13,050 nt of DNA. It comes from Kiritimatiellia bacterium (GTDB taxonomy: Bacteria > Verrucomicrobiota > Kiritimatiellia > RFP12 > UBA1067). The translations under genes and the position numbers were made by a program. Position 1 is the first letter of the stretch, and every line of letters begins with the position of its first letter. Where the stretch lies: NCBI GenBank assembly GCA_017547265.1, contig JAFYQC010000237.1, positions 1 through 13,050 of the forward strand, given 5' to 3'. The notes beneath the pieces were generated by a model. The model was not told the DNA's origin, made no database searches, and saw only the letters and a program-made list of their open reading frames with translations. Shown here piece by piece: positions 5,517 through 13,050 of the stretch.

Positions 5517-5590
5517 TGGAGGTGGGTAGCGGAGTTGAACCGCTGTAAGCGGATTTGCAGTCCGCTACCTAACCGCTCGGCCAACCCACC
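5517..5590 (-). tRNA. tRNA-Cys (anticodon GCA)
   Basis: 74 nt including an encoded CCA (5517-5519). The 7-bp acceptor stem GGTGGGT/ACCCACC, the anticodon stem GCGGA/TCCGC around loop CTGCAAA (anticodon GCA), and the T stem AGCGG/CCGCT with loop TTCAACT all pair. The discriminator base is U73, the key cysteine identity base. A sigma-70-like promoter lies just upstream at 5615-5644. No intrinsic terminator separates the tRNA from the membrane protein gene 9 nt downstream. Confidence 0.97.
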
Positions 5591-11917: not shown

Positions 11918-11955
11918 ATAAAAAAACTATATTCCCCTCGGCGAAGCTGCGACCA

Positions 11956-11996
11956 ACAGGGTCAGACTTGATTACCACAGTAGATTGCCACAGTAG
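11956..11996 (+). repeat. Left terminal inverted repeat of the mini-element
   Basis: Begins ACAGGGTCAGACTTGATT and contains tandem 13-mers ATTACCACAGTAG and ATTGCCACAGTAG. It pairs with 12148-12188, differing at about six positions. It supplies the stop codon of the 49-codon transposase remnant. Confidence 0.85.
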
Positions 11997-12121
11997 GTTT
12001 TCCTTGTCATAGCGGCGTAACTTTTTCGATTCGCCGCTTGCCCTCCTTCAAACGCGCGGTGGGCGACGCGGCTGATCAGGCGACAGCACCGATTTGGAAG
12101 ATTTATCCTGCAACGTCTCAT
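11972..12121 (-). pseudogene. Remnant of a REP-associated tyrosine (Y1/IS200-like) transposase, internally deleted
   Basis: A 49-codon ORF from ATG 12121 to TAA in the left inverted repeat. Residues 5-24 read RINLPNRCCRLISRVAHRAF, very like the first strand of RAYT/Y1 transposases, where a C/Y-H-L-I-S-R-V-A-H/N-R pattern precedes the HUH motif. After HRAF the similarity stops and a basic tail (residues 25-49) runs into the repeat. The HUH histidines and the catalytic tyrosine domain are missing, so it cannot be an active enzyme. The tail may be the original C-terminus joined by an internal deletion. The family call is from memory of the motif, without a search. Confidence 0.65.
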
Positions 12122-12134
12122 GTCGAACAGGATA

Positions 12135-13050
12135 TCACAATCTCCCGCTACTGTGATAATTTACTGTGGCAATCAGATCTGACCCTGTAGGTGCCGTAGA
12201 CAAATCGTGCGCCCACAGGCGCTCTGTCAGCTCTGCGCGCCTTTCGGGTGTCGATGCGTCCGCCGCATAGGGAGCAGGATATCCCGCAGCAAAAGGCCTG
12301 ACAAGTGCATTCAACAGCGCTTCCGCGTCGCGCGAAACGACAAAGAGCGGTGCGGGAGTGAGCGGAATCTCCGTCTCGCCGTCTTTATCGCAAGGCGGCG
12401 CGGCGCGGCGGTTGCCCATCAGATCGACGAACTTAAGGTCGCCGGGATGGCGGACGTCCCCATCCGCCTTGGCGCGTGAGGACACGCGCCCTCCCAATTT
12501 CAAACACACCCCCTTCTTCCGCCCAAGCTCAACCTGACGCTCGTTCGTCCAGACCGCCGCGACGCCATAGTCGCCCTGGCGGAAGACGTAAGCGCGCCAA
12601 TCGTCCCGCTTGACGTCGCCAAGGAACTTGGGCGACGGCAAGAGATGCCCCAGCGTATTCGGCACCATGTTCCACATGAACGGCGACATCGCTGCGTCCG
12701 CCACAAGGCGGTGCTGCCACGAATGGCTCGTCATGACGCGCGGCCAGTATTTGAGGTCCATTATGTAGAGCCGCGCCATGGCGGCGGCCTGGAGGAACTC
12801 GCGCCAACCAAGATCGAGAGATGCAGGTCCTCCGTTGATATAGACGTCGGCGGAGGATACCGCCCCGAAACGCGGAACGAAAAACGGAAGAACGTTGAAG
12901 CCTTCCGAAAACATGACCGGCGCGTCGCCGTAGCCGTACTTCTCCATGCGCGAAAGAAGCTCTGCCGCGTTCTCGTCGCGGTCTGCGTAGCCGAGATACG
13001 AGTTGTCGATCGCGTAATATGTATGTATCGCGATGAAATCGTAGCGGAAA
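12135..13050 (-). CDS. Glycoside-hydrolase-like protein, 3' part only, C-terminus altered by element insertion
   Basis: 304 residues are visible; the frame is open to the right edge, so the gene starts outside the window. The first part looks like the late strands of a TIM-barrel glycosidase: FIAIHTYYAIDNS, then PVMFSEGFNV, where the glutamate is a candidate nucleophile, then a helix-rich stretch with WPRVMTSHSW. The last third resembles a C-terminal beta-sandwich (YVFRQGDYGVAAVWTN; FVDLMGNRR; IPLTPAPLFVVSRD), as seen in GH39/GH51-like enzymes; the family is not certain. The final 17 residues and the TGA come from the mobile element at 11956-12188, so the natural C-terminus is lost or replaced. 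Context with GH2 and sugar-oxidising genes supports a glycan role. Confidence 0.75.
   Translation of the reverse strand, partial: FRYDFIAIHTYYAIDNSYLGYADRDENAAELLSRMEKYGYGDAPVMFSEGFNVLPFFVPRFGAVSSADVYINGGPASLDLGWREFLQAAAMARLYIMDLKYWPRVMTSHSWQHRLVADAAMSPFMWNMVPNTLGHLLPSPKFLGDVKRDDWRAYVFRQGDYGVAAVWTNERQVELGRKKGVCLKLGGRVSSRAKADGDVRHPGDLKFVDLMGNRRAAPPCDKDGETEIPLTPAPLFVVSRDAEALLNALVRPFAAGYPAPYAADASTPERRAELTERLWAHDLSTAPTGSDLIATVNYHSSGRL
12148..12188 (-). repeat. Right terminal inverted repeat of the mini-element
   Basis: Read on the minus strand it begins ACAGGGTCAGATCTGATT and carries 13-mers ATTGCCACAGTAA and ATTATCACAGTAG. It is read in frame by the glycosidase-like gene. Confidence 0.85.

What the first reader, a model, noticed from the sequence alone, without database searches (positions are those of the whole stretch)
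11956..12188. Small RAYT/REP-type transposon derivative with bipartite inverted-repeat ends
A 233-bp unit is bounded by 41-bp imperfect inverted repeats. Each end is built from an ACAGGGTCAGA cap plus two 13-bp direct repeats (ATTRYCACAGTAR). The six differences between the ends leave the cap and the CACAGTA cores intact, as if those are the recognised parts. It resembles a REPIN/MITE derived from a Y1-transposase element, but with longer, modular ends than classic REPs.
Basis: partly seen in the sequence, partly recalled or inferred. Interest (0 to 1): 0.72.

Follow-up and report, generated by a model that had tools for sequence, protein, structure and literature searches.

The report
Miniature Y1-transposon with repeat-built ends
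The 245-base unit is a shrunken, gene-less copy of a jumping gene that is common in one genus of gut bacteria; its ends use pairs of short direct repeats where this kind of enzyme usually has DNA hairpins, so it is a variant of a known kind rather than something wholly new.

Summary
In detail: 41-nt inverted ends with 6 mismatches (best of 100 dinucleotide shuffles: 16), each an intact cap plus two 13-nt repeats. Six or seven conserved bases outside each cap make the unit about 11950-12194. It matches in 30 of 61 held genomes of the nearest genus, uncultured gut bacteria titled Kiritimatiellae, Lentisphaerae or Verrucomicrobia.

On the minus strand it is an internally deleted transposase gene: promoter-like end, ATG at 12121, about 24 N-terminal codons, then the last 10 codons and a stop. 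A full-length element with the same kind of ends (caps differ slightly) carries a 356-aa Y1/HUH protein with a C-terminal winged helix (L117). So it is a MITE of a RAYT-related transposon.

It is not a REP or REPIN: single A and B ends fold no better than shuffles, while the one C and one P end tried do (z -9.9, -11.1). Closest known kind: TIRYT/TIRtron (TnpA_REP subclass 2.1). New here: the paired direct repeats, and repeat-built and palindromic ends within one protein clade. No clean empty site was found; one near-empty allele keeps a 14-nt tail remnant.

The parts
11950..12194 (-). whole unit: type-A MITE, read from the promoter end (12194) to the tail end (11950)
   Evidence: copy alignments run to about 6 bases outside the caps
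12178..12188 (-). cap of the promoter end, ACAGGGTCAGA
   Evidence: sequence; conserved in copies
12161..12173 (-). promoter end, repeat 1, ATTGCCACAGTAA
   Evidence: sequence
12148..12160 (-). promoter end, repeat 2, ATTATCACAGTAG; overlaps a degenerate -35-like TTATCA
   Evidence: sequence; in L117 the same place reads TTGCCA followed by TATAAT; one search lists no promoter here above its threshold
12050..12121 (-). remnant of the transposase start, MRRCRINLPNRCCRLISRVAHRAF
   Evidence: resembles the N-terminus of the L117 protein
12007..12039 (-). remnant of the transposase end, KRRIEKVTPL and stop, out of frame with the start in this copy
   Evidence: the L117 protein ends ERIRRVAPL
11984..11996 (+). 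tail end, repeat 2, ATTGCCACAGTAG
   Evidence: sequence
11971..11983 (+). tail end, repeat 1, ATTACCACAGTAG
   Evidence: sequence
11956..11966 (+). cap of the tail end, ACAGGGTCAGA
   Evidence: sequence; conserved in copies
12135..12188 (-). last 17 codons and stop of the upstream open frame (12135-13049), supplied by the element: TGSDLIATVNYHSSGRL

Best explanation
A non-autonomous, internally deleted copy (MITE) of a Y1/HUH transposon of the TIRYT kind. Shown: the same kind of ends on a full-length element with a Y1 gene; loss of the middle of that gene; many copies in the genus. Inferred: a Y1 protein made by a full-length relative binds the ends in trans, the winged helix reading the paired 13-nt repeats as duplex and the HUH core cutting near the cap; the element moves as a single strand, its two inverted ends pairing with each other, and leaves no target duplication. 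The repeat nearest the gene overlaps the -35-like box of the transposase promoter, so binding could also shut the gene off.
For: Matches in 30 of 61 genus genomes; 24 exact end matches in 5 of 30 genomes, 0 for the reversed pattern; 43 units of 150 or more aligned nt in the loci I searched, from the window and 16 genomes, 42 distinct. L117: 356-aa frame with Y1_Tnp and Fic-like_C over cut-off between ends with the type-A repeats; H58, H60 and Y171 invariant in the 36 aligned proteins; model closest to 4er8, the REP-bound RAYT, then IS608/ISDra2 proteins and a Fic protein, with weaker MarR-type hits. L244 equals the L117 element less 895 bp at 93 and 96% identity; L226 is an intermediate; 7 of 8 distinct deleted B copies listed share one 908-bp deletion, the eighth (L122) lacks 484 bp. 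No target duplication at the unit edges as drawn: 2-nt match in 1 of 41. Orientation with the longer flanking open frame: upstream 26 with, 5 against, 9 unclear of 40; downstream 25, 4, 10 of 39. The whole unit as one strand folds better than shuffles (z -6.4, -8.0), as any inverted-repeat unit would.
Against: In G001, the nearest genome held, I found no intact type-A gene, only remnants (assembly 82% complete). The window unit is only 72 and 87% identical to the L117 element over its two parts, and the L117 caps read GAAGGGTCAGC and AAAGGGTCAGA, not ACAGGGTCAGA. No pre-insertion site was seen. Gene order in the genus is broken also where there is no element, so flank discontinuity cannot be read as transposition. 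The winged helix is not special to repeat-built ends: the palindromic C family has the same domain over cut-off, and P proteins have sub-threshold HTH hits, which weakens the idea that this domain reads the repeats. Some copies are near-duplicates, so the orientation counts are not all independent.
Confidence: 0.88

Rival explanations
1. A classical REPIN: two REP hairpins in inverted orientation, moved by a RAYT that reads ssDNA hairpins.
For: GTAG closes the inner repeat in families A, B and D; the whole unit can fold on itself; the core protein is RAYT-like.
Against: Ends of types A and B fold no better than shuffles on the outward-reading strand (z 0.22, 0.49, -0.34, 0.55) and at most weakly on the other (z -1.71, -0.15). 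Nothing folds after GTAG on the promoter side (z -0.38, -0.69, 0.22). On the tail side a hairpin (z -4.0) lies about 14 nt after GTAG, with no match at the other end.
Confidence: 0.07
2. A domesticated regulatory unit: the repeats are operator or promoter parts kept for host genes, mobility being over.
For: Bias to lie in the direction of the neighbouring frames; the element supplies the end of the upstream frame.
Against: Copies have different flanks; the mini reading frame runs in frame to the native stop in 16 of 41 copies with a start found.
Confidence: 0.04
3. Copies spread mainly by horizontal transfer and recombination of whole gene blocks, the unit being a passive joint.
For: A 4.6-kb single-gene block is 99.0-99.8% identical in four genomes whose rpsA is 87-95% identical in the five pairs computed, in different surroundings, with element ends at its edges.
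Against: The edges carry different families (A, B, palindromic) in different genomes, which recombination between like copies would not give; 7 of 8 deleted B copies share one deletion, as expected from amplification of one deleted form.
Confidence: 0.15

Closest known systems
TIRYT / TIRtron (Di Nocera et al. 2013, PMC3733652), which Quentin et al. 2018 (PMC6006769) say probably corresponds to TnpA_REP subclass 2.1
   Same: RAYT-like Y1 protein, long, with a C-terminal helix-turn-helix; gene between terminal inverted repeats in place of REPs; related motif GGGGWSAS; some of those repeats form repeat families, some self-complementary.
   Different: Here ends hold paired 13-nt direct repeats, and deletion-derived MITEs are seen. 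'direct repeat' and 'internal deletion' do not occur in the main text of either paper; figures and supplements were not seen, so their drawn TIRs could hold such repeats.
REPIN / RAYT (Bertels and Rainey 2011, PMC3116915; search listing only)
   Same: Miniature, inverted, multi-copy, thought to depend on a RAYT-type enzyme.
   Different: No REP hairpins; the unit is a deletion derivative of the whole transposon; ends longer.
IS200/IS605 (IS608, ISDra2)
   Same: Y1 HUH core; no target duplication (the latter recalled for IS200/IS605).
   Different: Those use subterminal secondary structures (abstract of PMC6006769); lack of terminal inverted repeats is recalled.

Membership tests
TIRYT / TIRtron | RAYT-like Y1 protein with HUH and catalytic Tyr | tested here: met
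   L117: Y1_Tnp over cut-off; H58, H60, Y171 invariant in 36 proteins; 4er8 best fold match. NCBIfam REP_Tyr_transpos was hit by the B protein below its cut-off, 43.6 of 80 bits. That Y171 is the catalytic one is recalled from the RAYT motif
TIRYT / TIRtron | gene between terminal inverted repeats rather than REPs | tested here: met
   L117, L093, L187, L190
TIRYT / TIRtron | GGGGWSAS in the repeats | tested here: inconclusive
   type A has AGGGTCAG, 7 of 8; the short-protein S family has GGGGACAG exactly
TIRYT / TIRtron | C-terminal helix-turn-helix | tested here: met
   PF21247 over cut-off in A, B and C, below it in D; weak MarR-type matches of the model. The domains named in PMC6006769 are others (Bac_DnaA_C, HTH_23, HTH_28)
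TnpA_REP subclass 2.1 | match to the subclass profile | not testable with these tools
   profile not held
REP / REPIN | GTAG or GTGG with a hairpin of 7 or more pairs 0-2 nt away | tested here: not met
   GTAG present, no such hairpin within 2 nt
IS200/IS605 | subterminal hairpins at the ends, no inverted terminal repeats | tested here: not met
MITE | short, no intact transposase, many copies, ends of a full-length element | tested here: met
MITE | filled and empty alleles | tested here: inconclusive
   G046 filled; G048 lacks the unit but keeps 14 nt of its tail

The most novel reading that the evidence does not exclude
A clade of Y1/HUH transposons in gut Kiritimatiellae has given up hairpin recognition for paired direct repeats read as duplex by a winged helix, and the ends of its many families act as joints at which single-gene blocks are exchanged between species.
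Probability: 0.25. Interest if true: 0.75.

Novelty: new variant of a known kind. Interest (0 to 1): 0.5.

Why it matters
The Y1 enzymes with solved DNA complexes found were solved on hairpin or end DNA of REP, IS608 and ISDra2. Here related proteins of one genus have either palindromic ends (perfect in some) or hairpin-less, repeat-built ends. That is a natural series for testing how such an enzyme changes what it recognises, and whether RAYT relatives with a helix-turn-helix are true transposases that make MITEs.

Tried and rejected
REP/REPIN filing was rejected on folding. Selection on the mini reading frame is not supported: in frame in 16 of 41 (in 2 further copies of 43 no start was found). 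Element-driven loss of gene order was considered and set aside after the control: 0 of 40 breakpoints near a cap in core loci (these cluster at a few places, so they are not independent), 17 of 49 in pairs with loci fetched because they hold elements, random 7.5%; several of the 17 are the elements themselves. Exact end pattern in viral contigs: 0. The pattern was wrongly spaced and says nothing. One origin of the direct-repeat families A, B and D apart from C is not settled, and L117 is a long branch.

Full report
Observation. The unit at 11956-12188 is as described: 41-nt inverted arms, 6 mismatches, against 16 at best in 100 dinucleotide shuffles. Caps and CACAGTA cores are intact in the window. 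Copies show conserved bases for six or seven positions outside each cap, so the element is about 11950-12194. Among copies the caps hold best; the core of the inner promoter-side repeat is changed in 8 of 22 (7 CACACTA, 1 CACAATA), leaving aside one copy out of register and one with another core change.

Copies and host. The window's own assembly is not held. In G001, the nearest genome by shared words, a 751-nt query gave 32 matching stretches, 31 of them on the unit or its edges (one unit can give more than one stretch). Genus-wide, 30 of 61 genomes match at E 0.001 or better (at most 12 candidates scored per genome, so counts are lower bounds). Exact ends were found in 5 of 30 genomes, all in the genus, with none for the reversed pattern. 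The loci I searched hold 43 units of at least 150 aligned nt, 42 distinct, from the window and 16 genomes. Nine loci encoding relatives of the L117 protein carry titles of uncultured Verrucomicrobia, Lentisphaerae, Kiritimatiellae or plain bacteria; one names goat duodenum, and RUG names I recall as rumen genomes. By rpsA the window is 98.6% identical to G043 and 97.2% to G001.

What it is. On the minus strand the element starts with a promoter-like end, an ATG at 12121 and MRRCRINLPNRCCRLISRVAHRAF, then jumps to KRRIEKVTPL and stop. These correspond to the two ends of the Y1 protein of L117 (G045:C23), 356 aa, which stands between ends with the same repeats and slightly different caps. Its tail end is present twice in tandem. 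L244 is the L117 element less 895 bp, at 93 and 96% identity; L226 is a longer, partly deleted form, 88 and 92% identical to the window unit at its two parts; 7 of 8 distinct deleted B copies share one 908-bp deletion of the full B element with a 3-nt overlap at the joint, and the eighth lacks 484 bp. This is how MITEs form from a parent.

The enzyme and the ends. The A protein has Y1_Tnp and a C-terminal winged-helix domain, PF21247. The AlphaFold model, mean pLDDT 84, is closest to the REP-bound RAYT 4er8, then IS608 and ISDra2 enzymes; weaker hits are MarR-like. 22 gave a score of 42 or more, 17 gave 35 or less (some of these cut at a contig edge), and 2 had no gene hit. Of the 22, 14 hold GGTC[AT]GACC, 2 (A and B) its half GGGTCAG, 4 GGGGACAG, one GGGGGACAGTCC, and one (L187, B-like) has lost the cap. 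Families A, B and D add two direct repeats ending in GTAG; C and the P genes are palindromes, perfect in some. On the tree P, S and C are each one side of a branch; A, B, D and C lie in one clade (97/95), but A+B+D alone is not resolved and L117 is a long branch. As single DNA strands the A and B ends tried (three A, one B) fold no better than shuffles, while the one C and one P end tried give z of -9.9 and -11.1. The whole MITE folds on itself through its inverted ends.

Mechanism, shown and inferred. Shown: parent with matching ends, deletion, many copies, no target duplication at the edges as drawn (2-nt identity in 1 of 41), and a bias to lie in the direction of the longer neighbouring frame (26 to 5 upstream, 25 to 4 downstream, 9 and 10 unclear). 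Inferred: the Y1 protein acts in trans, reads the paired repeats through its winged helix, and moves a single strand. Against the winged-helix step: the palindromic C family has the same domain and P proteins have sub-threshold HTH hits. The overlap of the inner repeat with the -35-like box suggests self-regulation; in the window that promoter is degenerate and was not called.

Alleles. For the unit in G046:C54 both flanks are found together in G048:C32, the 82 nt next to the junction on the left identical and 200 nt on the right 99% identical; G048 has 29 nt there, 15 unrelated and the last 14 of the element's tail, so it looks like a loss scar and not a site before insertion. With the same left flank, G001, G011 and G039 have 15, 21 and 50 nt of the promoter end and then other DNA, and G059 has 15 nt and then the second half of the element. 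Elsewhere flank homologues ran past the junction into DNA not found on the other side, but gene order in this genus is loose in general, so I do not read this as caused by the element.

Known kinds. For PMC3733652 I read passages and section 16; for PMC6006769 the abstract, passages and sections 11 and 20; other papers only as listings. TIRYT occurs in 2 papers of the library. Searches on RAYT, REPIN and MITE, on this lineage (the latter listed 15 of 1,553) and on deletion derivatives (15 of 138) listed none on these elements by title or abstract start. Two listed planctomycete papers mention RAYT once each and were not opened. This is a limited search. I file the element as a MITE of a TIRYT-like transposon, a new variant of a known kind.

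Noticed in passing
L266 4033-8621; L259 3279-7864; L255 2657-7442; L264 1-4791: A 4.6-kb block with one 1458-aa frame (no Pfam match) is 99.0-99.8% identical in four genomes whose rpsA is 87-95% identical in the pairs computed; its surroundings differ and element ends of different families stand at its edges. Mis-binning of contigs is not excluded, above all for G054.
   Followed up: partly
L252 3760-4722 against L263 2806-2864: About 0.96 kb in G059, apparently one small gene between two unlike element ends, stands where G048 has 57 nt; flanks are collinear on both sides, 92 and 97% identical. The gene was not analysed.
   Followed up: partly
window 12135-13049, minus strand; L029 about 1460-1580: Open frames run into the promoter end and stop there with element-coded residues (window: TGSDLIATVNYHSSGRL; L029: a frame that I take for an hsdR-like fragment, not tested).
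   Followed up: partly
L027, L006, L116, L011; also L117: Partial duplication of element ends: in the first four a new end starts right after CAG of an older one; in L117 the whole tail end is doubled.
   Followed up: no
L176; L259 about 3279: Another end type with TCAGGTAGAATTTGC twice beside AAAAGGGACCCTTTTG.
   Followed up: no
L099 about 6079 and L097 about 8017: GTACGCCAAGCRAAGCTCGGCAGAACTG follows ACAG of both an A and a B end: perhaps another repeat element.
   Followed up: no
L004, L005, L252, L260, L261: Five MITEs in four genomes have a truncated promoter end next to nearly the same GGCAAATCCGCCGCGTGGAGCC but different tail-side flanks.
   Followed up: partly
window 5517-5590, minus strand: tRNA-Cys, near the point where collinearity with G001 ends (5630).
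   Followed up: no
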